From positions 1 to 55,127 of the forward strand of contig JAQUQV010000008.1 in assembly GCA_028715905.1 (NCBI GenBank): DNA of 55,127 nt. Reading direction: 5' to 3'. The position numbers were made by a program, and so were the translations under genes. The stretch comes from Kiritimatiellia bacterium. Its GTDB lineage: Bacteria; Verrucomicrobiota; Kiritimatiellia; JAAZAB01. The stretch's first letter is position 1; every line of letters begins with the position of its first letter. The notes below the pieces were generated by a model. It was not told where the DNA came from. It worked only from the letters and a program-made list of their open reading frames with translations, and did no database searches. Shown here one piece after another: positions 6,160 through 39,305 of the stretch.

Positions 6160-7251
6160 TTAAGGCGTCGCCTGCCGCATGACTTCTTTAATTTTTACGA
6201 TGCGTTTTTCCGCCATGGATTTTTCGGCGGCCACGGCCACGGCCACGGCTGTTTTCCCTATCGCGGCGCCGGCAAACGGTTTTTTGCCTTTGCGTATGCA
6301 ATCCGCAAAATCAACGAATATTCCGTCATTGCCGTTTTGATTGAAGGCGGTTGGAACATTTCCGCTGGTCGCGATGTTTATCCGCGCGATATTGCGCGAG
6401 TCATTCGGTAAAATTTCAACGTTTTGGCCAAGGTCAAAGCCTTCCGTCCTGATCATGCCTTTTGCGCCGGCCGCGCCGATTTCCCGCACGTGCTGGCCGA
6501 CCCCGCACTCGCATTTGAAAGGCAACCCCATAAACATGCAGAGCTGCAGGAACGCTCTGCCGCCGTTTTCATAGTCAATAATCACATAGGCATTGTCCGC
6601 GATGTTGCTGTTCAACCCGAACGGTTTTTTAAACACGTCCGCCGCGCCGGAAGCGAAGACTTGCAGCGGCTTTGAGCCCATGAGCCAGTTGAAAACATCA
6701 AAATGATGACAGCTTTTTTCAACCAGCATGCCTCCGCTTTTTCGCCTGTCAAAGGCCCAGGACATGGTTTCCGGGAATGGATTGCGGAATTCTCTGATCC
6801 AGGCCATGACCGGCTTGCCGATTTCGCCTGCTTTGATAAGCGCCGCCGCCTTCTGTAAATGCGCGTGATAACGCATTTGTTGGCCGACCATAAAAATCTT
6901 TTTCGCCCTGTTGGCGGCGGCAATCATGTCGTCGCATTCCTTCACGGAAAGCGCGAGCGGCTTTTCGCAATAAACGTGCTTGCCGGACTGAAACGCCCGG
7001 ATGCTCAGGTCGCGGTGGGCGAATTGCGGAGCGGCAATCACAACCGCCTCTATTTCATTATCCTGAAAAACATCCGTTGCATTGGTTGTAACTTGCAGGC
7101 CGGCGCCAAGCTGTTCTTTGGCGGCCTGAAGCCGCTCTTCTCGTTTATCGCAGATCTTCATGATGTTAAATGAATTGTTGTTGATCAGGTTTTGCGCAAG
7201 CCCTTGGGCGCGGAATCCGAAGCCGATTATAGCCGTCTTTATTTTTTTCAT
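6160..7251 (-). CDS. Gfo/Idh/MocA-family NAD(P)-dependent oxidoreductase
   Basis: 363 residues. The N-terminal Rossmann domain starts AIIGFGFRAQGLAQNL, and the family hallmark YCEKPLALS lies near residue 95, with its Lys as the expected catalytic/cofactor residue. The C-terminal alpha/beta domain contains a GGMLVEKSCHHFDVFNWL segment, where the His pair is typical of the substrate pocket. The enzyme probably oxidises or reduces a sugar, inositol or amino sugar; the substrate is unknown. It is transcribed divergently from the GntR regulator across an AT-rich gap with two palindromes, so co-regulation with the URO-D/DUF4838 genes is likely (inference). Confidence 0.9.
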   Translation of the reverse strand: MKKIKTAIIGFGFRAQGLAQNLINNNSFNIMKICDKREERLQAAKEQLGAGLQVTTNATDVFQDNEIEAVVIAAPQFAHRDLSIRAFQSGKHVYCEKPLALSVKECDDMIAAANRAKKIFMVGQQMRYHAHLQKAAALIKAGEIGKPVMAWIREFRNPFPETMSWAFDRRKSGGMLVEKSCHHFDVFNWLMGSKPLQVFASGAADVFKKPFGLNSNIADNAYVIIDYENGGRAFLQLCMFMGLPFKCECGVGQHVREIGAAGAKGMIRTEGFDLGQNVEILPNDSRNIARINIATSGNVPTAFNQNGNDGIFVDFADCIRKGKKPFAGAAIGKTAVAVAVAAEKSMAEKRIVKIKEVMRQATP

Positions 7252-7282
7252 GTTTTTTTCTTTTGAAAACCAAGAATAACAT

Positions 7283-7297
7283 ATAAAACGATTTTAT
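7283..7297. promoter_or_regulatory. Candidate operator 1 (ATAAAA-N3-TTTTAT)
   Basis: A perfect 6-bp inverted repeat ATAAAA-CGA-TTTTAT in the divergent gap between the Gfo/Idh gene and the GntR regulator. It closely resembles the second palindrome 42 bases downstream, centre to centre. Spacing of about four helical turns is compatible with cooperative regulator binding. Binding by the neighbouring GntR protein is an inference. The gap is strongly AT-rich, so chance palindromes are more likely here than elsewhere. Confidence 0.45.
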
Positions 7298-7323
7298 CAA
7301 TAGAAAAATGCGATTATATAAAA

Positions 7324-7341
7324 AATAAAATGTATTTTATT
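7324..7341. promoter_or_regulatory. Candidate operator 2 (AATAAAAT-GT-ATTTTATT)
   Basis: A perfect 8-bp inverted repeat with a 2-base spacer, containing the same ATAAAA/TTTTAT half-sites as the palindrome at 7283-7297. It lies about 100 bases upstream of the GntR regulator ATG and about 75 bases from the start of the divergent dehydrogenase gene. The best guess is the operator of the GntR-family regulator encoded next to it. Confidence 0.5.
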
Positions 7342-7439
7342 GTTGATATTTTTGCGCCGATTGCTTATTTTAAAGAAAAGGCAGGAGGCTGTAGACGGAG
7401 ATTATATTTAGCTGCCTTCAGGTTTCAGTCTGTCAAGCC

Positions 7440-8627
7440 ATGTACAAATATCTTGAACTTAAAAATCGTATCATTGACGGCATTGTCAGGGGAAGATGGC
7501 CGGTCGGTTCCATCCTGCCGAAAGAAAACGAGCTCGTCGCGCAATTTAACATCTCGCAGTCAACGGTCTGCAACGCCATGCGGGCGCTGGTAACGGAAGG
7601 GTATATCAGACGCAGAAAAAACGTCGGGACGATCGTGATCAACGACAAGCCGATTGCGGACAATGTTCCGGAACCGGCGGAAATATACGTGGCGGGAATG
7701 CCGCCTGCGCAGTATGCGCATACCATCAATTGGTTTGTCAGCGAGGAATGTCTTCGGGGTATTCTTAATAATGCCAGTTATCCGGTTAAAATGATGCGCG
7801 CATCGGAATTTGTTAAAAAATGGGGCGCCGTTTGCAGTGTGCCGCCTTCGCCGGCCCGGCGGCGCGTCCCGGCCGGGCCGCCGGGCGCATGCGCGGCTCG
7901 CCCCGTGGGTTCGTTCCGTCTGCCGGAGCCGGAAGGAATTATTGGCTCTGGCCGGCTGATTTCCGATGCCGGGCGGCCGCCCGTTCGCCGCGGTCTCATC
8001 TTGTCTGATCCCGAACCGGATATTTTGGCGCGGGTTAAGGATTTACCCTGTGTTTGTATAAACCGATTGGCGTCTAAATTTCTGCCTTTCAACAGCGTCA
8101 ACAACGATTCAGCCCAGACGGGTTATCAGTCAATATCCTATTTGGCGCACGAGCTCGGCCATCAAAAAATAGCAATTGTATGGGGAGGGCAATTGTATCA
8201 TCAGGATTTTATGGCCGGCTGCCGGCGGGCATTTTCCATGTTTGCGTTGGCGCTGGACGAGAATCTGGTCGTTGACACGCGGGGCGGGGGTGAGGAAGCA
8301 GGATATGCCGCCGGGCAAAAGCTTTTGAAGCGGCGGAAACAATTTACCGCCGTATGTGTTGACACTGATTATAAGGCTTTGGGCTTAATTAAAGCTCTGT
8401 GCGCCGCCGGCGCGCGCGTGTCGGAGGATATTTCCGTGATTGGCGCGGATGACATTCCGGAAATCAGCGAAAAGAACGGCCTGACCACCATCAACCGCGC
8501 CTTTTACGAAACCGGCGAACAGGCGGTCAAAATGCTTGAAAAACGCCTTGCTGATCCCGATTTAAAGCCGGCTTCGGTCATGATTTGCGGTCATATCGTT
8601 GAACGGCAGACATGCCGGAAAATATAA
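7440..8627 (+). CDS. GntR-family regulator with LacI-type ligand-binding domain
   Basis: 395 residues. An N-terminal GntR winged helix (about 1-70; pattern LKNRIIDGIVRGRWPVGSIL..E..L..F.ISQSTV..AMRAL..EGYIRRR) is joined to a C-terminal periplasmic-binding-protein-like sensor (about 100-395; CINRLASKF, GHQKIAIVWGG, SVIGADDIPEIS, INRAFYETGEQAV), as in the AraR/GntR-PBP1 type of sugar regulator. Residues about 128-175 are unusually Pro/Arg/Ala-rich and do not look like the fold. In the +2 frame near 7943 the sequence reads YWLWPADF, which would suit a GII-WLWP strand, so two compensating frame errors are possible. It probably controls the divergent dehydrogenase and the URO-D/DUF4838 genes. Confidence 0.82.
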   Translation: MYKYLELKNRIIDGIVRGRWPVGSILPKENELVAQFNISQSTVCNAMRALVTEGYIRRRKNVGTIVINDKPIADNVPEPAEIYVAGMPPAQYAHTINWFVSEECLRGILNNASYPVKMMRASEFVKKWGAVCSVPPSPARRRVPAGPPGACAARPVGSFRLPEPEGIIGSGRLISDAGRPPVRRGLILSDPEPDILARVKDLPCVCINRLASKFLPFNSVNNDSAQTGYQSISYLAHELGHQKIAIVWGGQLYHQDFMAGCRRAFSMFALALDENLVVDTRGGGEEAGYAAGQKLLKRRKQFTAVCVDTDYKALGLIKALCAAGARVSEDISVIGADDIPEISEKNGLTTINRAFYETGEQAVKMLEKRLADPDLKPASVMICGHIVERQTCRKI

Positions 8628-8664
8628 AAACCTGTGTTGGGCAGTATTTTTGCCCGCCGGACAT

Positions 8665-9738
8665 ATGATGACTCCAAGACAAAGAGTTGAAATTGCGCTG
8701 AAGGGCGGCCACGGCGTCCGCGTGCCGTTTACCATGTATGAGACTATGATTCCCCAATGCGCCGCGGAACGCGAAATGCGCAATCGCGGTCTGTGTATCG
8801 TCAAGCGCGTCGACTGCTTTAAGACTCATCGTCCGAACGTCAAGACATATAGTCATACGTTTTATGAAAACCACCGCCAACTGGTCCGGCATTTTTATGA
8901 AACGCCGTATGGCGTTCTCACCACCCTGCATGAGCCGTCTGGCTTTACCAGCTGGGCACTTGAGCGGATGTATAAGAAGCCGGACGATTACAAGGCAATG
9001 CTTTTCTTTATCAAGGACGAGGTCTATGAGCCGGATTACGAACACGTTGCGTCCCTGGACAAGACGCTTGGCGAGGATGTGATCTTAAGGGCGGGCATTG
9101 GCGGCGAGCCGTTGCAATCGCTTGTTTCAGGCCCGTTTTTTGATACCGCTCAATTCTGCCTTGAATGGATGGATCATCGTGATGAACTCATGAAATTGTA
9201 CGATGCCATCGCCGCGAAACGCCGTTCCATCTACAAACTGGTCGCAGATGCGCCGGTATTGCACGCCAATTACGGCGGCAACGTTACGCCGGAAATAATC
9301 GGGCTGGAAATGTTCAGGCAATACTACGTTCCGCATTACAACGAGGCTGCGGAAATATTGCACAAAAAAGGGAAACTTATCGGGTGCCATTTTGACGCCA
9401 ATTGCAAATTGTTTGCGGATGCCATCGCCAAAACCAGGTTGGATTACATTGAGGCGTTCACGCCGGCGCCGGATACCGACATGCGCATAGCGGATGCGCG
9501 CCAGGCCTGGTCCGACAAGGTTATATGGTTGAATTTTCCTTCCAGCGTGCATCTGAAACCGGACGGGGTGGTGGAACAGACGACCGTTGACCTGCTTGAT
9601 CAGGCGGAATCAATTGACGGTTTGATTATGGGAATTACCGAGGATATCCCGCCTGACCGCTGGCAAAACAGCTGCCGCGCGGTCATGGAGGGGCTTGACC
9701 GCCATGCGCGCCAAAGACCGGAATTGTATCGGGATTGA
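8665..9738 (+). CDS. URO-D / cobalamin-methyltransferase-like protein
   Basis: About 357 residues of the uroporphyrinogen decarboxylase superfamily (TIM barrel), starting MMTPRQRVEIALKGG as in many URO-D-like proteins. The C-terminal half has the family layout: a CHFDANCKLFADAIAKT segment where methyltransferase homologues have a His/Cys zinc site, DYIEAFTPAPDTDM, and GLIMGITEDIPPDRW. The canonical HxCG pattern is replaced by CHFDAN. Such proteins next to sugar genes are thought to act in methyl-group or C1 chemistry rather than heme synthesis, but this one has no assigned reaction. The ATG at 8665 was taken because upstream in-frame starts overlap the GntR gene. Confidence 0.8.
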   Translation: MMTPRQRVEIALKGGHGVRVPFTMYETMIPQCAAEREMRNRGLCIVKRVDCFKTHRPNVKTYSHTFYENHRQLVRHFYETPYGVLTTLHEPSGFTSWALERMYKKPDDYKAMLFFIKDEVYEPDYEHVASLDKTLGEDVILRAGIGGEPLQSLVSGPFFDTAQFCLEWMDHRDELMKLYDAIAAKRRSIYKLVADAPVLHANYGGNVTPEIIGLEMFRQYYVPHYNEAAEILHKKGKLIGCHFDANCKLFADAIAKTRLDYIEAFTPAPDTDMRIADARQAWSDKVIWLNFPSSVHLKPDGVVEQTTVDLLDQAESIDGLIMGITEDIPPDRWQNSCRAVMEGLDRHARQRPELYRD

Positions 9739-9808
9739 TTTCAGACGGCGAAAGGGCGGGAAAAACGGAGCCGGAACACATGATAAGCAGAAAGGAAACA
9801 AAAGCGCC

Positions 9809-12358
9809 ATGAAAACAGAAAATACCGCGGCAAAAACAAGCGGTCTTGGAAAAAAATCTGATTTTTCCGGGGGAAACTTGCTTAAATCGGGCGGATGGCT
9901 GCGGGGCCTTTTTTTTACGGGTCTGGTCGTGTTCCTTCTCGGATGCAACACGCGGGAAGTTGAAAACGGCGGAAAAAAATATGCCGGGGATCCTGTTATT
10001 GTTTTGCCGAAAAATGCGGATGCGATCAAAAAGTTTGCGGCGGAAGAATTGAAAAAACATCTGGAGCTTATCACCGGCAAACCGATAGAAATTACGGACG
10101 ATGCAGAAGGGAAAAAGGGGTTTCCTTTTTATGTCGGGATTCCCTTTCCTGACGATAAAGCGGAATTGAAAAGAGAAGAGGCGCGGTACCGGATAACTCC
10201 GGCCGGGATCTATCTATACGGAGAGGACGCGCATGGAGAGGATGCCGACCTGGAAAAAGTTTTACACCCCCGGGTGACAAGAACAGGAACGATGTTTGCC
10301 GTTTATTTTTTCCTGGAAAATGAGCTGGGCGTGAAATGGATGGAGCCGGGGGATGACGGCATAGCTTTCTGCCCCAGGTCGGAACTGGTGTTTGCGTCCA
10401 AATGTTTTTCATGGGCGCCTGGACTGACAATCAGACAGTTTTCCTTGAACAGGCGGATCCTGTTCAGGAATGTGCCGGTGAAAATGGCCTATAACCGGGA
10501 AGAAATGGACCGGATAATCCTGGAGCACGGGATATGGTTGAGAAGAATGCGGCTTGGTTCAAGCGAAATGATTGAGATGGGGCATGCTTTCACTGACTGG
10601 TGGGAAAAATACGGCAAAAATCATCCCGAATATTTTGCGTTGAATCCGGAAAACGGCCGGCGGGAGCCCTACAGGGAAAAAAGGCCTGACCTTGCAAAGC
10701 TTTGTGTTGCCAACAGGAATGTTCAAAAGCAGATAGTGGCCAACTGGCTGGAAAGAAAAAAGAAACAGCCGGAGCTGGTCAATATCAATGTTTGCGACAA
10801 TGATGGCTTTGGTTTTTGCGCCTGTCCTGAATGCCTCAAACTTGATGTCAGAAAAGAAGGAGAGCCGCTCGTGGCATGCCAGAAAGATGGAAAAAATATC
10901 CTGGCTCACATGACAGACAGAGAAGTTTGGTTCGCCAACGAAGTGCTGAAGCTGGCGCGCGAAAAATATCCCGACCTAAAAGCCGTAATGTACGGCTATG
11001 GTTGTTATCTCCAGGCGCCCCGGCGCGAAAAAGTGTCAGAGGGCGTTATCATAGAGTTTGTTCCCACCATGCTTTCGGGGAGCGCGGCAATAGAAAAACT
11101 ATATTGCGATTGGAAAAATATGGGGGCAAAGGAGTTCATTCACCGGCCGAATGACATGTGGCTGGCGACGGGGCTGCCCATGGGGTTTGAAAAACTAATG
11201 TTTGCATCGTTGAAAACAGGTTTTGAAAACGGAGCTATCGGCATGCTTTTTGACTCGCTGATCACGGGTTCCTGGGAAGCCGACGGGCTTGGCTACTATG
11301 TCATAGCCCGGGCCGGCACATATCCGGACCGCAGTTTTGATGACTGGGAGGATGAATACTGTTCCGGCTTCGGCCCTGCCAAAGATGACATGAAAGAATA
11401 CTTCCAATACTGGCGAAATAACTGGGACAGCAGGATATGGAACGCAAACACGCCGGACAAAGAAAATGTCTTGCAGGATGCCGCCTGCGCCTACCAGGTG
11501 GTTTTGCGCAGGATGCTTGATTACTTTACGGCGGCTGATTTTGATGCTACCGACGCCATTCTTGCAAAGGCCTCCGCAAAGGAGCTGAGCGCGGATGCAA
11601 GAAAACGCGTTGAGAAGATGCAGCTTGCCAATAAGCATTCCCGCCTCTCAATGGAACTGCTTGCGGCCTTTTCCGATGAGAATTCTTCCTTGCGCCAGAA
11701 GGTTGAGAAAGCCAAAGAGGCGTTAAATTTCAGGATAGAAAACAGGGACAAAATCAAGATGAACTGGTCTGCTTTTTTGGCCGCTGAAAGTTACTTCGGC
11801 GATGATGAGAAGCATAAATGGGACGGGCCGTTGAACGGGGCTATGGCTTGGGCCGAGGCCTTTTTTGACGGCGAGTTGGAGCCGCTCGCTCAAAAACCCC
11901 TGGTTTGGAAGTTCAAAATAGACGCCGAAGCCGCCGGAACGCAGGAAGACCTGCAGAACGCAAAATGGACCGATGTCAACAAGACATGGCTTTCCGTCAA
12001 TACCGTCTGTTCCTGGGACAAGCCCCGAAGCGGACTTCCCGAAGAGATTAGAAGCAGACTTGAAAAGCATGATGGCAAAGGCTGGTATGCCGCGGCAATT
12101 AAAAAAGATGAAAGGATGAAAGATCGGAAAGTTTATCTTGTCTTTGGCGCGGCGGACGGATTCTGCCGGGTCTATGTCAATGGCGCAAAAGCGGGAGAAA
12201 ATATTTGTAAAAAAGACAATGCGGGGGGCGCGCCGTTTACAATCAGGATTGACCAGCGCTTCGATGATGGTGAATGGCAGCAGATAAGAGTCTGCGTTTC
12301 AAACGCCACCGGGCCCGGCGGCATCTGCAAGCCGGTATGGCTTGCCGCCGGCAAATAA
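9809..12358 (+). CDS. DUF4838-type lipoprotein (glycosidase-like)
   Basis: 849 residues. A hydrophobic stretch GLFFTGLVVFLLGC with a lipobox Cys near residue 46 predicts an exported lipoprotein. The n-region is long; an in-frame TTG at 9878 behind GGGGGAAAC would give a normal-length signal peptide. The mature part starts with an alpha-glucuronidase-N-like domain (VIVLPKNADAIKKFAAEELKKHLELI), followed by the DUF4838 region (about 290-600), including FGFCACPECLKL. The C-terminus (about 720-849) looks like a carbohydrate-binding beta-sandwich (YLVFGAADGFCRVYVNGAKAG). Families with this layout are found in polysaccharide-degradation loci. The substrate is unknown. Confidence 0.85.
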   Translation: MKTENTAAKTSGLGKKSDFSGGNLLKSGGWLRGLFFTGLVVFLLGCNTREVENGGKKYAGDPVIVLPKNADAIKKFAAEELKKHLELITGKPIEITDDAEGKKGFPFYVGIPFPDDKAELKREEARYRITPAGIYLYGEDAHGEDADLEKVLHPRVTRTGTMFAVYFFLENELGVKWMEPGDDGIAFCPRSELVFASKCFSWAPGLTIRQFSLNRRILFRNVPVKMAYNREEMDRIILEHGIWLRRMRLGSSEMIEMGHAFTDWWEKYGKNHPEYFALNPENGRREPYREKRPDLAKLCVANRNVQKQIVANWLERKKKQPELVNINVCDNDGFGFCACPECLKLDVRKEGEPLVACQKDGKNILAHMTDREVWFANEVLKLAREKYPDLKAVMYGYGCYLQAPRREKVSEGVIIEFVPTMLSGSAAIEKLYCDWKNMGAKEFIHRPNDMWLATGLPMGFEKLMFASLKTGFENGAIGMLFDSLITGSWEADGLGYYVIARAGTYPDRSFDDWEDEYCSGFGPAKDDMKEYFQYWRNNWDSRIWNANTPDKENVLQDAACAYQVVLRRMLDYFTAADFDATDAILAKASAKELSADARKRVEKMQLANKHSRLSMELLAAFSDENSSLRQKVEKAKEALNFRIENRDKIKMNWSAFLAAESYFGDDEKHKWDGPLNGAMAWAEAFFDGELEPLAQKPLVWKFKIDAEAAGTQEDLQNAKWTDVNKTWLSVNTVCSWDKPRSGLPEEIRSRLEKHDGKGWYAAAIKKDERMKDRKVYLVFGAADGFCRVYVNGAKAGENICKKDNAGGAPFTIRIDQRFDDGEWQQIRVCVSNATGPGGICKPVWLAAGK

Positions 12359-33996: not shown

Positions 33997-35067
33997 ATGC
34001 ATTTGCCGCAGCGCATCACCATTAAAAAACTGGCGCGGGAAATAGGCCTTTCGGTCTGTACCATCAACAAGGCCCTGAACAACAAGCCGCGCATCAGTCC
34101 GGAAACGCGCGAATTGGTGATAAAATCCGCCGCCCGTCTTGGATACCGGCCCAATACGCTGGCCAAGGCCTTGGCCCGGCCGGTCCTTTCAATCGGCTTC
34201 GTGTATCCGGATGTCTGGCCCAGCCATACCGGCTTGCTCATTCGCGGCGCGCGTGAAAGTTTGGAACTGCTCCGCGATCATCGCGTCAATTCATTATTGC
34301 GCCCCCTTCCGGCCGGGAATGAAAAGGCCTTCCTGTCCACCATCCGGGAATTGGCTGATAGTAAAATTGCCGGTCTGATTCTGTGTCTGTTTAATTACAG
34401 CCGGAAGTGTCTGGATAAGGCATGGCATTTGCTCAAGAAGAGGGAAATCCCCTTTATATTGCTTGGAAGTAATATTCCGGGCGGGCCGCAGATTTGTTCG
34501 GTATGGCATGATTGCCGCCGGTGCGGAAAAATGGCGGCCGAGGTTCTTGATTGGATGACGCCTGATCGTTCTGTCGCAATTTTCATAGGCCGGAAAGGGG
34601 TGCTTGATCACGATTTGAAAATAGAGGGATTCCAGAGCTGGCTGGACCAAACCAAGCTCAAACTGGCCGGGATTGGGGAAACGCATGATGATCCCGCAAT
34701 GGGATATCCGGTCGCCAGTGACATGTTCAAAAAATATCCGGATATTTCCGGAATCTATATAGGCACTGAAAACGCGGCCGGAATCTGCAGATGTCTGGTT
34801 GAGTCTGGATTGGCGGGAAAGGTCAAGATAGCGGCGACCGGCGTATCCGATGATGTTTGGCAAGGACTTCAAACGGGGGTGATCAATTGCAGTATCAACC
34901 AGAACCAGTCCATCCAGGGACGGCAGGCCGCCGGTATCCTTTATGATTACCTGGAACTGGGCCGGATGCCAAAATCATCCGAAATCCTGGTCACACCGGA
35001 ACTGATTTTACGGAGCACGATGGACGTGCGTAATCCGGAAGATTTGTGCACGGGAGGTATTCTATAA
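33997..35067 (+). CDS. LacI-family transcriptional regulator
   Basis: 356 residues. The N-terminal helix-turn-helix reads ITIKKLAREIGLSVCTINKAL (about 7-30), with the hinge region LGYRPNTLAKALA near residue 50. The remainder is a periplasmic-binding-protein-like sugar sensor (GFVYPDVWPSHTG, IGRKGVLDHDLKIEGF, DISGIYIGTENAAG, VSDDVWQGLQTG). It precedes the two glycosidase genes and is presumably their regulator. A promoter and a TAAACGATTA operator candidate lie directly upstream. Confidence 0.92.
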   Translation: MHLPQRITIKKLAREIGLSVCTINKALNNKPRISPETRELVIKSAARLGYRPNTLAKALARPVLSIGFVYPDVWPSHTGLLIRGARESLELLRDHRVNSLLRPLPAGNEKAFLSTIRELADSKIAGLILCLFNYSRKCLDKAWHLLKKREIPFILLGSNIPGGPQICSVWHDCRRCGKMAAEVLDWMTPDRSVAIFIGRKGVLDHDLKIEGFQSWLDQTKLKLAGIGETHDDPAMGYPVASDMFKKYPDISGIYIGTENAAGICRCLVESGLAGKVKIAATGVSDDVWQGLQTGVINCSINQNQSIQGRQAAGILYDYLELGRMPKSSEILVTPELILRSTMDVRNPEDLCTGGIL

Positions 35068-35137
35068 CAGTTCCTGTGCGTTATTCTGAACAACGTGTCG
35101 GTAATATTTTAACCATGACATGACGTAGGCTGGAAAT

Positions 35138-37072
35138 ATGACAAACAACGAGATAAAAATTGATGTGCATTCGCCTTATGCCGTCATAATGAGCCTTGAC
35201 TTAGAACCATCCGGCGGTCATTGGGGCGTCTTACGACCAGAGGGCAATAAAATTTCGTTTGAAAACGATATTTACGACCTGACTCTTCACAAGACGGCTC
35301 TGGAAGCCGACGTTACAGGCATTGAATATATCCTTCGTCGCAAGGATGAAACATCGTTTCTTTTGAAACACATGGAAGTTGCGATTGAAGTGAGTGCAGC
35401 CGACGTCCAAAACATACTTACTCCGTACGGCGTTAAGCATGACTATCAATGCCTTACGCCATACAATCATTGGCATTGGGGATTGAAAGATTTTGGTATA
35501 TCCAGCGCCGGCGATCCGGTTGTCATGGCATTAGACCATGGCCAAAATAACAAATGCACTGTTGGCATGGCATGGACAGCACCTGAAACTTATATAGCGG
35601 CAAAGCCTTTACCCGGTTTTAATGAGGAATGGGACAGGAAATACAGGCTTTCATTGACAAGACCAAGATTCCCGAAGGATAAAAAAGCGCCCCCGGCACA
35701 GGTATCGGAATATCGCGACGGCATTTTTATCTCTACGAAACCGGAAACCTGGTTCAGGAGCATGCGCCGTTATGCCGCGTACGTTGATCAGCGCAGAGGA
35801 TACAAGCCGCGTAAACTATCTCCGTGGAGTTTGTCGCCCTGTTGGAGCGCTGCCTGGTCTCTTTGGCCACCGCCCGGATTTGAGTCTAAATTACTCCAAG
35901 ACCGATTGGAGTCTCAATTGGCTCTGGCCAAAGACTTGGGTTTTGGAATATTACATCTGGACATTGACTGGACGGAGCATGATGGATATTACCGCCAACC
36001 GTCAAAAAAATTCCCCCGTTTTCCCGAGTTGATCAAGAAGCTGAATGAAATGGGCATGGCTCTTGAATTGCACATTTCAACTCCCACGGTGTCACAACAA
36101 GATCCCCATTACAACGATAGGCTGAAAAAATTCGTAATGGCAACCGCCACACAACCGGAAGGAGTGTTTAATCGCTGGACTTCGGGGAAAAGCGCCATTC
36201 TCTGCCCGCGCACTTCCGGCTTGAGGGATCATCTGGTTGAGTCTTTTCAATACATGGTGGACAAACTGGGTGTAAAATCATTTTGGATTGACTTCAATGA
36301 TGACTTTGTTCCGCTTGAGCCTTGCATCGCCAGACATGAGCATATCTGGAACACCCTGGGAGAAGGCTGGGATGAAACTATGAAGACCATGACAAAGGCG
36401 GCCTGGGATATTAACCCCGAAGTTACGTTCATTTCCCGCCGCAGTATCGCCAATCTTAACAATAAGCCGTATTTGACGCATGGCTGTGCCTTTGATTGCG
36501 AATACTCCCTGGCTCTAAATAGACACGATGCGGTCTACGTCAGGAGTCTTGGAGATATTATTCCGTACACTTTTCATGAAAAATGGCCGGATTCGGAGTC
36601 CGATCAGGGCGTGGCAATGCACATGGCAAACTGCGCCTTTCTCATGGTGCCGGTGGTGTGTCAGGAACTTGCCCGTTTGCCCCAGGGACACCGTGATGTC
36701 ATAAAGGCCTGGTTGAGCTTCTATAAAATGCATGCTTCCGACCTTATCCTCGGTGATTTTGAGCCGATTACTTTTTCGCTGTCCGGCCCATTCCGGATAG
36801 AAAGCAAGGGCAAGGCGTTTATCGGTTGTTTTGAAGTGGTGCCGGGCGCTGTGCCGCTCACAACCGAACCATCCGAAATCTGGGTTTTAAACACCGTTGA
36901 GAAGGATTTCTTTACGCGGTTAACGCCTGTTAAGGGAACCTTTAAGGCGCAGTGGCTTGACTATCGGCTGCGGCCGGCCGGTCCGGAATTTAAAGTCAGT
37001 GCAAAAGACGGGCAGCTGCTTCTTGACGGTAATTGTCAGGCATTGCCGTCCATGTTGCATTTGTGGAAATAA
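35138..37072 (+). CDS. GH31/GH36-type glycoside hydrolase
   Basis: 644 residues, an N-terminal beta-sandwich (about 1-215) followed by a TIM barrel of the GH27/31/36 superfamily. LDIDWTEHDGYYRQPSKKF with KFPRFPELIKKLNEMG corresponds to barrel strand 1 of GH31-like enzymes, and SFWIDFNDDF corresponds to the nucleophile strand (GH31 WxDMNE). The canonical FTDMNE is replaced by WIDFNDD, so the specificity is uncertain; alpha-galactosidase or alpha-xylosidase-like activity are candidates. No signal peptide is visible, so it should be cytoplasmic. It follows the LacI regulator by 70 bases and precedes an alpha-galactosidase. Confidence 0.8.
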   Translation: MTNNEIKIDVHSPYAVIMSLDLEPSGGHWGVLRPEGNKISFENDIYDLTLHKTALEADVTGIEYILRRKDETSFLLKHMEVAIEVSAADVQNILTPYGVKHDYQCLTPYNHWHWGLKDFGISSAGDPVVMALDHGQNNKCTVGMAWTAPETYIAAKPLPGFNEEWDRKYRLSLTRPRFPKDKKAPPAQVSEYRDGIFISTKPETWFRSMRRYAAYVDQRRGYKPRKLSPWSLSPCWSAAWSLWPPPGFESKLLQDRLESQLALAKDLGFGILHLDIDWTEHDGYYRQPSKKFPRFPELIKKLNEMGMALELHISTPTVSQQDPHYNDRLKKFVMATATQPEGVFNRWTSGKSAILCPRTSGLRDHLVESFQYMVDKLGVKSFWIDFNDDFVPLEPCIARHEHIWNTLGEGWDETMKTMTKAAWDINPEVTFISRRSIANLNNKPYLTHGCAFDCEYSLALNRHDAVYVRSLGDIIPYTFHEKWPDSESDQGVAMHMANCAFLMVPVVCQELARLPQGHRDVIKAWLSFYKMHASDLILGDFEPITFSLSGPFRIESKGKAFIGCFEVVPGAVPLTTEPSEIWVLNTVEKDFFTRLTPVKGTFKAQWLDYRLRPAGPEFKVSAKDGQLLLDGNCQALPSMLHLWK

Positions 37073-37094
37073 ATTCAAAACAAAAAGGAAAACC

Positions 37095-39305
37095 ATGAAC
37101 GCAAAGTCAGGCAAAAATAAGGCCAAAAATCAAAAAGCGGTTTCCAGCGGCGCCCGTGAATCGGGCAAGACGAATAATTATATCACCTCGCTCCCCTGTG
37201 AGAAACCCGGATGGCATTATGGATCGGATTGCGCGATTTATACCGAGCGTTTTGTGGATGGGCGGCTTTTATGCGCGGCTTACCAGGATAACGGCGCTCC
37301 GATCCATGAATGTGATGAGCAAGTCTGTCAACCGGCTTTTGACCTGGTTGTTGACGGCGACGCGCTTTATTTCGGATGGGAATTTATCGCGTTTGAATCG
37401 AGCGGAATTTCAAACGGCGGGGTTCAGGGAACACTTACCCTGAAACACAGCATCAAGCCTCTGTCGTTGAAAATTATCACCTGCGCCTGCGGCCATGGTT
37501 TTTTCAGCAGGCGGCTTGAGCTAACCAATACTTCCAAGGACAAGACCCTGGGGCTGACGTCCATTGTGCCCTTGTGCGGTATTCTCTGGCCAATGAAAGA
37601 CAATCTGGAAGACAACCTGAACGACCGAAGGCTATCGCCTTATTCGGCCGGATATTTCAAGGATGTTACATGGGCTAACGAGGGCAATTTTGAATGGCAA
37701 GATTTACCCGCCAATACGGAGATATCAACCGGATCCACGCACGGCCGGAGCGGACACAATAGTCCCTTTGCGGTTCTTCGGAACAATATATACGGCGGAT
37801 ATTTTGTATGCCAGCTGGGCTGGTCGGCCAACTGGCGCATGACTTTTCATTCGCATTATGAGGGTGGCACAAGGCTGGGGTTTTCAGCAGCGCCCGTCGC
37901 TCCGTCTCCCATGCGGCTTATCGCGCCCGGCGAAACAATCGCCGCTCCCGAAGTTCATTTTGGACTTAACCATGAAAGTTTTGATTCCGCGATTCAATCT
38001 CTCCACTCGTATTTGCGGACTTTTGTGCTGAAGAAAGGCGCCGAAACGCCCCAGCCGGTCATTTACAATCACTGGGGTTACATTGAACATAAAATAAGCG
38101 AGGGAAAACTTTTACGGGAAATAGATATTGCCGCGGAAGCCGGGGCGGAGTTGTTTATCGTGGATGCCGGCTGGTATGGCGACAAGGAAACTTCATGGTT
38201 TGAGACAACCGGAAACTGGCAGGCGGGGAACCGGCTTCCCAACGATCTCTTTCCAGTTTTTGATTATGCCCGCAAGAAAGGCTTGAAATGCGGACTCTGG
38301 GCCGAAGTTGAGAGCGCGGGCAAAAAATCAAAGATTGCCGCCGAACATCCGGATTGGTTCATCATGCGCTATGGAAAATCGGTTGAGCGGATATTGGATT
38401 TGAGCAAGCCGGCGGTCAGGGATTATGTTGAATCCGAAGTAATTCGGCTTGTTGAAAGATACAAACTTGATTTGTTCCGCCTGGACTACAACTTGGACGC
38501 CAGGGAAGGCGGATTCAACCTGGTTGACGGACATTATGAAAACACACTCTGGCGCCACGTGGAAGCCGTCTACGGCATTTTTGACCGGCTTTCCGTCCGT
38601 TTCCCCGGCCTCCTCTTGGAAAACTGTTCCAGCGGCGGCGGCCGCACGGACGTTGGTATAATGAGCCGGTTTACCACGACGTGGGTTTCCGACTGGATGA
38701 GAATGCCGCGCGCTGTGCGTATTCTCAACGGCATGACTATGTCATTGCCGCCGGAATATGTAAACCGTTTGTTTGGCTCGTGCGGCAATGCCAGCGAGCG
38801 GGGGAACATGGAGACTGTCATGCAGGTCGTTATCCTCGGTCATCCGGCCTTATCCGGGCTGACGCCGTCCCTGGCCGAAGCCAATCCCGCGCTCATGGAG
38901 TGCGTGAAAAAATATGTTGGCATTTACAAGGATTTTATCCGGCCATTTCACCGGCAGGCAAAGGTTTATCATCACACACCGGTTATTTCTGGCGGGGATG
39001 GACGGGGTTGGTGCGCGCTGGAATACGTTTCACGCGACCAACTCCGGGCGGTTGCGGCGGTTTTCCGGCTGGTTAACGCCGAAGGAAATGTTTATCGCTT
39101 TAAATTCCGCGGTTTGAATCCCGCGCTTGATTACCGGCTCCGATTCGAGCCGGGCGGTCTTTTTGCCGAGGAAAAAGGTTTTAAACTCATGCAGGAAGGC
39201 ATTGAAATAGAACTGGATAACGCCTTAACCTCCCGGCTTATTCTTTTGACGGCTGAAGAAAAATTACCGGCGTGTTTTGACCAGGCCAGAGCGATGCGTA
39301 AATGA
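37095..39305 (+). CDS. GH36 alpha-galactosidase
   Basis: 736 residues. Large N-terminal beta-sandwich, then the TIM barrel with ELFIVDAGWYGD (strand 2), the nucleophile strand LFRLDYNLD (family KxDxN; here R-L-D-Y-N), ENCSSGGGRTD and the acid/base region WVSDWMRMPRAVRIL, then a C-terminal beta-domain. It hydrolyses terminal alpha-1,6-galactose of melibiose, raffinose or galactomannan. It has no signal peptide and the first 25 residues are Lys-rich. The ATG at 37095 is preceded by AAAGGAAAA. The stop overlaps the next ATG. Confidence 0.9.
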   Translation: MNAKSGKNKAKNQKAVSSGARESGKTNNYITSLPCEKPGWHYGSDCAIYTERFVDGRLLCAAYQDNGAPIHECDEQVCQPAFDLVVDGDALYFGWEFIAFESSGISNGGVQGTLTLKHSIKPLSLKIITCACGHGFFSRRLELTNTSKDKTLGLTSIVPLCGILWPMKDNLEDNLNDRRLSPYSAGYFKDVTWANEGNFEWQDLPANTEISTGSTHGRSGHNSPFAVLRNNIYGGYFVCQLGWSANWRMTFHSHYEGGTRLGFSAAPVAPSPMRLIAPGETIAAPEVHFGLNHESFDSAIQSLHSYLRTFVLKKGAETPQPVIYNHWGYIEHKISEGKLLREIDIAAEAGAELFIVDAGWYGDKETSWFETTGNWQAGNRLPNDLFPVFDYARKKGLKCGLWAEVESAGKKSKIAAEHPDWFIMRYGKSVERILDLSKPAVRDYVESEVIRLVERYKLDLFRLDYNLDAREGGFNLVDGHYENTLWRHVEAVYGIFDRLSVRFPGLLLENCSSGGGRTDVGIMSRFTTTWVSDWMRMPRAVRILNGMTMSLPPEYVNRLFGSCGNASERGNMETVMQVVILGHPALSGLTPSLAEANPALMECVKKYVGIYKDFIRPFHRQAKVYHHTPVISGGDGRGWCALEYVSRDQLRAVAAVFRLVNAEGNVYRFKFRGLNPALDYRLRFEPGGLFAEEKGFKLMQEGIEIELDNALTSRLILLTAEEKLPACFDQARAMRK

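What the first reader, a model, noticed from the sequence alone, without database searches (positions are those of the whole stretch)
6160..12358. GntR-controlled island: dehydrogenase, URO-D-like protein and DUF4838 lipoprotein
A cytosolic dehydrogenase, a URO-D/methyltransferase-like protein with an altered zinc site (CHFDAN) and an exported DUF4838 lipoprotein share a sugar-type regulator. None has a known substrate. The combination suggests uptake or cleavage of an O-methylated or glucuronate-containing glycan, with demethylation or C1 transfer in the cell.
Basis: inference. Interest (0 to 1): 0.5.

Follow-up and report, generated by a model that had tools for sequence, protein, structure and literature searches.

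The report
Sugar-type island with methyltransferase-like enzyme
A small bacterial gene island pairs an uncharacterised, widely distributed enzyme whose metal site looks built to remove methyl groups from oxygen with a dehydrogenase and an exported sugar-cutting-type protein, so it may let anaerobes use methylated sugars, but the activity has not been tested.

Summary
The four genes are real: Gfo/Idh/MocA dehydrogenase (P0001), GntR/LacI-type regulator (P0002), URO-D-superfamily protein (P0003), DUF4838 lipoprotein (P0004). P0003 belongs to an uncharacterised family: 138 encoded relatives found, best 80 kept. Its model has the URO-D/MtaA fold. The MtaA-type His-Cys-Cys site aligns with His241, Asp243 and Glu325, kept in 81, 81 and 80 of 81 sequences. 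Such carboxylate substitution is reported for UroD-superfamily O-methyltransferases (PMC10418091). The corrinoid activase RACE is present in 12 of 12 genomes with strong homologues against 93 of 276 others; 28 of 127 operon neighbours are further URO-D proteins. So C1 transfer is plausible. The island as drawn is not conserved: DUF4838 occurs in 141 of 288 genomes and lies near P0003 relatives at about background rate. A dehydrogenase-P0003 pair recurs in one other genome. P0004's model is closest in Foldseek to GH115/GH67 alpha-glucuronidases and GH138, which fits, but does not show, a glucuronate link. Substrate and activity are unknown.

The parts
6160..7251 (-). P0001, cytosolic Gfo/Idh/MocA dehydrogenase, 363 aa; inositol-dehydrogenase-like by HMM but far below the IolG cut-off (157.8 vs 355 bits)
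   Evidence: one orthologue (65.5% identity) found, in L063 next to a P0003 homologue; none other in 288 genomes at E<=1e-70
7283..7297 (.). palindrome ATAAAACGATTTTAT, candidate operator, overlapping a promoter-like site for P0001
   Evidence: pattern chosen after seeing the sequence
7325..7340 (.). palindrome ATAAAATGTATTTTAT, candidate operator just before a promoter-like site for P0002
   Evidence: pattern chosen after seeing the sequence
7440..8627 (+). P0002, GntR helix-turn-helix plus LacI-type sensor domain (AraR-like domain order, name recalled), 395 aa, with a GC-rich Pro/Ala/Arg insert around residues 131-160
8668..9738 (+). P0003, URO-D-superfamily protein with conserved His241, Asp243, Glu325
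9809..12358 (+). P0004, DUF4838 (CAZy GH163-type) lipoprotein, 849 aa, lipobox Cys46, C-terminal GH2-N-like jelly roll (about 682-849)

Best explanation
P0003 is most likely a corrinoid-dependent methyltransferase of the UroD superfamily, of the O-demethylase (MT I) type: a hard-ligand metal site (His241, Asp243, Glu325) polarises the ether oxygen of a methylated sugar or polyol, and a Co(I) corrinoid protein encoded elsewhere in the genome takes the methyl group towards tetrahydrofolate. P0001 oxidises the substrate or the demethylated product. P0004, an exported glycosidase-like lipoprotein, releases the methylated sugar. P0002, relieved by that sugar, controls both transcripts through two operators between P0001 and P0002. 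Shown: gene identities, P0003's predicted fold, aligned and conserved ligand residues, co-occurrence with RACE, corrinoid proteins in the genome. Inferred: metal binding, reaction, substrate, direction of transfer, role of P0001 and P0004, regulation.
For: Fold: AF2 model pLDDT 92.5; URO-D chains Z about 23, MtaA 4ay7 Z 21.7, next class MetE Z 16.3. Ligands: hhalign of A1 with an MtaA-like paralogue family (A4, which matches 4ay7 at 5.9e-43) puts H241, D243, E325 on His, Cys, Cys; 81/81, 81/81, 80/81 conserved. PMC10418091 passages: S-methyltransferases of the superfamily have His-Cys-Cys, O-methyltransferases replace one or both Cys by Glu/Asp or by non-coordinating residues. RACE in 12 of 12 genomes with strong P0003 homologues vs 93 of 276, p 3.6e-6. 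Neighbours: 28 of 127 URO-D, 3 B12-binding, 2 MTTB, 1 of 37 MtaB. Own genome: RACE, a free-standing corrinoid protein, a His-Cys-Cys URO-D protein near RACE, pterin-binding and MTHFR proteins. Dehydrogenase-P0003 pair in L063, overlapping by 4 bp. P0004 model: GH115, GH138, GH67 top Foldseek hits.
Against: No corrinoid protein or RACE gene was seen in the part of the window read. Most neighbouring URO-D genes come from one lineage (Opitutae); outside it 5 loci of the 80 have one within 2.5 kb. Weaker URO-D homologues also track RACE (24 of 26), so the link is not special to this family. O-demethylases without zinc exist, so the site does not decide the reaction. No sequence match of family A1 to any PDB chain of the superfamily, CdmB included, at E<=1. 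P0004 homologues have no P0003-family gene nearby in the loci read (output partly cut).
Confidence: 0.36

Rival explanations
1. P0003 is a metal-dependent lyase, isomerase or decarboxylase of a sugar acid that uses the URO-D barrel without corrinoid; the island is an ordinary uronate or polyol catabolic set.
For: URO-D-like genes sit among sugar enzymes in the own genome (L185: sugar-isomerase-like TIM-barrel, aminotransferase and URO-D-like genes, read by eye) and near Gfo/Idh genes in several loci (L055, L056, L062, L063, L108). An Asp/Glu/His site suits Mg, Mn or Fe enol chemistry (general knowledge). No corrinoid gene was seen in the part of the window read.
Against: 12 of 12 co-occurrence with RACE and neighbours of corrinoid type; the ligand positions are those of the methyltransferase zinc site.
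Confidence: 0.3
2. The four genes are no functional unit: P0003, with or without P0001, acts in C1 metabolism, and P0004 is one of several DUF4838 glycosidases that landed downstream.
For: DUF4838 in 141 of 288 genomes and 4 matches in the own genome, 3 over the cut-off; 3 of 80 P0003 loci have a DUF4838-type gene within 10 kb where about 0.9 or more is expected (p 0.06); P0004 relatives are at most 41% identical and lie elsewhere.
Against: Same strand, short gaps, no convincing terminator between P0003 and P0004; single candidate control region upstream.
Confidence: 0.45
3. P0003 is an MT II-type enzyme, moving a methyl group from methyl-corrinoid to an oxygen- or carboxylate-bearing acceptor (methylation, not demethylation).
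For: Closest solved methyltransferase fold is MtaA, an MT II; Opitutae loci hold several URO-D proteins with different metal motifs, as in multi-step relays.
Against: The His-Cys-Cys site of thiol acceptors is lost in all 81 sequences.
Confidence: 0.12

Closest known systems
MtaA (methylcobalamin:coenzyme M methyltransferase, PDB 4ay7) and MtaA-like proteins (Mlp)
   Same: same barrel (Z 21.7); the three ligand positions align through an MtaA-like paralogue family
   Different: His-Cys-Cys is His-Asp-Glu here; 13% identity in the structural alignment
UroD-superfamily O-demethylases (MtvB, VdmB, OdmB, MtoB) and the chloromethane enzyme CdmB
   Same: superfamily; carboxylate-substituted or Cys-poor site reported for the O-enzymes (PMC10418091); dependence on a corrinoid protein and RACE expected
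   Different: those act on methoxyaromatics or haloalkanes (PMC13222342, PMC8630106 passages); no sequence match of A1 to CdmB in the PDB search; not compared with VdmB, OdmB, MtvB or MtoB directly
Uroporphyrinogen decarboxylase HemE
   Same: fold (Z about 23)
   Different: no NCBIfam equivalog match at E<=0.01; 10-15% identity in the structural alignment; sugar-type gene context
CAZy GH163 / DUF4838
   Same: P0004 passes the Pfam cut-off; a DUF4838 protein is labelled GH163 in PMC9870897
   Different: P0004-type proteins add a GH2-N-like C-terminal domain and have a different motif at about 479-486; the characterised GH163 acts on N-glycans
GH115 and GH67 alpha-glucuronidases
   Same: best Foldseek hits of the P0004 model, with GH138; a DUF4838 protein in L128 matches Glyco_hydro_67N
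   Different: 10-12% identity, TM 0.32-0.43, no Pfam or PDB sequence match of P0004 to either family

Membership tests
UroD superfamily (PF01208) | Pfam match and URO-D barrel fold | tested here: met
   27.8 bits vs cut-off 23.9; Foldseek 1.8e-10 and Z about 23
HemE | match to the curated equivalog model | tested here: not met
   no NCBIfam match for P0003 at E<=0.01
Soluble CoM methyltransferases / MtaA-like proteins | His-Cys-Cys zinc site | tested here: not met
   His-Asp-Glu in 80 of 81 sequences, His-Asp-Asp in 1
UroD-superfamily O-demethylases (MT I) | Cys ligand(s) replaced by carboxylate | tested here: met
   alignment only; rule taken from PMC10418091 passages
UroD-superfamily O-demethylases (MT I) | corrinoid protein and RACE available | tested here: met
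   in the genome, not beside P0003; 12 of 12 strong-homologue genomes have RACE
UroD-superfamily O-demethylases (MT I) | sequence relation to characterised O-demethylases | tested here: inconclusive
   no PDB match of A1 in the superfamily at E<=1; characterised O-demethylase sequences were not compared
UroD-superfamily O-demethylases (MT I) | methyl transfer from an ether to Co(I) corrinoid | not testable with these tools
   needs enzymology
DUF4838 / GH163 | Pfam cut-off | tested here: met
   86.1 bits vs 26.6
DUF4838 / GH163 | GH163 catalytic residues | tested here: inconclusive
   D332, E274, R285, Y397, W435 kept in 13 of 13 aligned members, but the catalytic residues of GH163 were not found in the passages read
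GH115 / GH67 | family-level sequence match | tested here: inconclusive
   fold similarity only; no sequence match
Inositol 2-dehydrogenase IolG | equivalog cut-off | tested here: not met
   157.8 vs 355 bits
AraR-type regulators | GntR domain plus LacI-type sensor | tested here: met
   the AraR comparison is recalled

The most novel reading that the evidence does not exclude
The island encodes an anaerobic, corrinoid-dependent route for O-methylated sugars: a GH115/GH67-like lipoprotein frees a methylated uronic acid (such as 4-O-methylglucuronate), and P0003 founds a widespread family of O-demethylases for aliphatic sugar or polyol ethers with a His-Asp-Glu metal site, feeding the methyl group to the folate pool.
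Probability: 0.1. Interest if true: 0.75.

Novelty: new variant of a known kind. Interest (0 to 1): 0.42.

Why it matters
Methyl ethers on plant and algal sugars must be removed somewhere. The corrinoid O-demethylases and relatives described in the papers read here act on methoxyaromatics or haloalkanes, and three library searches for the sugar case listed no paper whose title or abstract start concerns corrinoid demethylation of sugar ethers. The P0003 family, with 80 named loci in hand, a fixed residue triad and a recurrent RACE partner, gives a defined protein to test.

Tried and rejected
Conserved four-gene unit: rejected. P0003 neighbourhoods differ between loci; P0002 has no close relative in 288 genomes (best 35% over 233 residues, E<=1e-25); P0001 has none at E<=1e-70 and one in L063.

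DUF4838 co-occurrence: 9 of 12 strong-P0003 genomes vs 132 of 276, p 0.06; DUF4838 also tracks RACE weakly (69 of 141 vs 36 of 147). Not persuasive.

Rows set aside: the strong set is the 12 genomes with near full-length matches of about 44% identity or more; G213 (66% identity over 76 residues, a 92-aa remnant) was left out and has no RACE; with it the count is 12 of 13. No control for phylogeny or lifestyle was possible, because unmatched genomes are only partly listed. URO-D and DUF4838 local searches used HMMs built in the box from session sequences, and gene calls come from a home-made ORF caller, so neighbour counts are approximate. The pooled Pfam scan took 127 of the 140 operon neighbours of at least 150 aa, leaving out mainly long or contig-end ones; the divergent scan took 37 of 39.

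Operators: 2 matches in the window, expected 0.01, but the pattern was made from these sites, and genome-wide the count equals its control (5 vs 5). Promoter and terminator scans were at chance. The hairpin before P0003 is unremarkable (z -1.35).

A GC-rich insert in P0002 has no second copy in the genome.

Plasmid collection: no match to P0003.

Literature: PMC10418091 was seen as outline and passages; PMC13222342, PMC8630106, PMC9870897 and PMC10154615 as passages only; others as search listings.
Full report
Observation. The region holds four genes as described. Pfam and NCBIfam name them a Gfo/Idh/MocA dehydrogenase, a GntR plus LacI-sensor regulator, a weak URO-D match and a DUF4838 protein with a Glyco_hydro_2_N-like end. 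P0001 is divergent from the other three, which run together with gaps of about 40 and 70 bp. A tRNA-Ala lies before the island. The genome is a 2.67 Mb draft in 141 contigs.

P0003 family. In 288 genomes of the phylum, 38 match P0003 at E<=1e-5; 12 of them, the window's own included, have near full-length matches of about 44% identity or more. In genome contigs 138 encoded relatives were found and the best 80 kept, 48-68% identical, from Planctomycetes, Verrucomicrobia, Lentisphaerae, Omnitrophota, Chloroflexi, Armatimonadetes, Spirochaetes and others; all but one are titled MAG. The AF2 model (pLDDT 92.5) matches URO-D (Z about 23) and MtaA (Z 21.7) well above MetE (16.3).

Metal site. Profile comparison with a paralogue family that is itself MtaA-like (4ay7 at 5.9e-43) places His241, Asp243 and Glu325 on His, Cys and Cys of that family; that these residues are the MtaA zinc ligands is recalled, and agrees with the His-Cys-Cys rule in PMC10418091 (passages). 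In 81 aligned members His241 and Asp243 are invariant, Glu325 is Glu in 80 and Asp in 1; Thr324, Glu262, Phe264, Pro266, Pro268 and Asn289 are also invariant. PMC10418091 states that S-methyltransferases of the superfamily keep His-Cys-Cys while O-methyltransferases replace or lose Cys ligands. This is why demethylation of an oxygen-bound methyl is the leading reading. PMC13222342 (passages) warns that zinc-free O-demethylases and haloalkane enzymes exist in the same superfamily.

Context of relatives. Of 127 operon neighbours scanned, 28 are URO-D proteins, 3 B12-binding, 2 MTTB, 3 Gfo/Idh, 4 PhyH. Of 37 divergent neighbours, 10 match HTH_18 (AraC type), 1 MtaB, 2 Gfo/Idh, 1 DUF4838. In 13 loci, nearly all titled Opitutae, Opitutaceae or Verrucomicrobia, P0003 relatives sit with one or more further URO-D genes of different metal motif; outside these 13, 5 loci have one within 2.5 kb. 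RACE (PF14574) is found in 105 of 288 genomes and in all 12 with strong homologues (p 3.6e-6); weaker URO-D homologues also track it, 24 of 26. The own genome has RACE, a free-standing corrinoid protein, a second corrinoid-type match on a short contig, a His-Cys-Cys URO-D protein 6 kb from RACE, a FolP-like and a second pterin-binding protein and MTHFR matches.

The pair with P0001. In L063 (Verrucomicrobiia bacterium STC_78) a 65.5% identical dehydrogenase overlaps a 63% identical P0003 relative by 4 bp, behind a LacI-type regulator and an M14 peptidase-like gene; no DUF4838 gene was found there. No other P0001 orthologue was seen in 288 genomes. The pair was found by looking beside P0003 relatives, so it is weak evidence of linkage, but it ties dehydrogenase, sugar-type regulator and P0003 in two genomes.

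P0004. DUF4838 is found in 141 of 288 genomes. P0004's nearest relatives in that sample are 41% identical or less, and none of those read carried a P0003-family gene within the fetched stretch, although part of that output was cut. DUF4838-type genes within 10 kb of P0003 relatives: 3 of 80 loci (L101, L111, L128), against about 0.9 expected, a lower bound because match counts per genome are capped; the L111 protein is P0004-like by BLAST and local HMM but was not called DUF4838 by Pfam at 1e-4. The P0004 model (pLDDT 82.6) has GH115, GH138 and GH67 enzymes as best Foldseek hits (E 3.2e-15 down to about 1e-9, TM 0.32-0.43), but VIA rows are mostly filled by the C-terminal jelly roll, which matches GH2 beta-glucuronidases. 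A DUF4838 relative in L128 matches Glyco_hydro_67N. PMC9870897 labels a DUF4838 protein GH163; PMC10154615 describes a GH163 that cuts GlcNAc-beta1,2-Man in N-glycans. No DUF4838 chain was found in the PDB by sequence with the queries used. So glycan cleavage is likely, glucuronate only possible.

Regulation. Two palindromes, 7283-7297 and 7325-7340, lie about four helix turns apart between P0001 and P0002. They are the only matches of their pattern in the window and 2 of 5 sites in the genome, but the pattern was drawn from them. P0002 resembles L199 (35%) except for a GC-rich insert.

Verdict. P0003's family is an uncharacterised variant of a known superfamily, as far as the searches above show. 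Interest lies in a testable His-Asp-Glu O-demethylase candidate in sugar context.

Noticed in passing
window 7830-7990: A GC-rich stretch (73-93% GC over 7830-7919) adds a Pro/Ala/Arg-rich insert to P0002 that its best homologue lacks; no second copy in the genome.
   Followed up: partly
window 33997-39305: A second sugar-type cluster: LacI regulator, GH31-like and GH36 melibiase genes.
   Followed up: no
L089:7993-12096, L099:7980-12194 and other Opitutae loci: Runs of several URO-D-superfamily genes with different metal motifs (HTDG, HICG..C, HFDAN..E, HACG) around P0003 relatives, suggestive of a multi-step methyl relay.
   Followed up: partly
L048:1449-1727: G213 carries a 92-aa remnant of the P0003 family with a large internal deletion, in a genome where no RACE was found.
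   Followed up: partly
L039:9430-14077: G229 has a P0003 homologue close to an MttB-like protein (identified by eye) and a mannosylglycerate-hydrolase-like glycoside hydrolase.
   Followed up: no
L185:4298-9575: Own-genome cluster with two URO-D-like genes, two sugar-isomerase-like TIM-barrel genes and a DegT-type aminotransferase gene (named by eye).
   Followed up: no
window 10817-10834 (P0004 residues 337-342): CxCxxC invariant in 24 of 24 P0004-type DUF4838 proteins, next to the invariant Asn-Asp; possible structural metal site.
   Followed up: no
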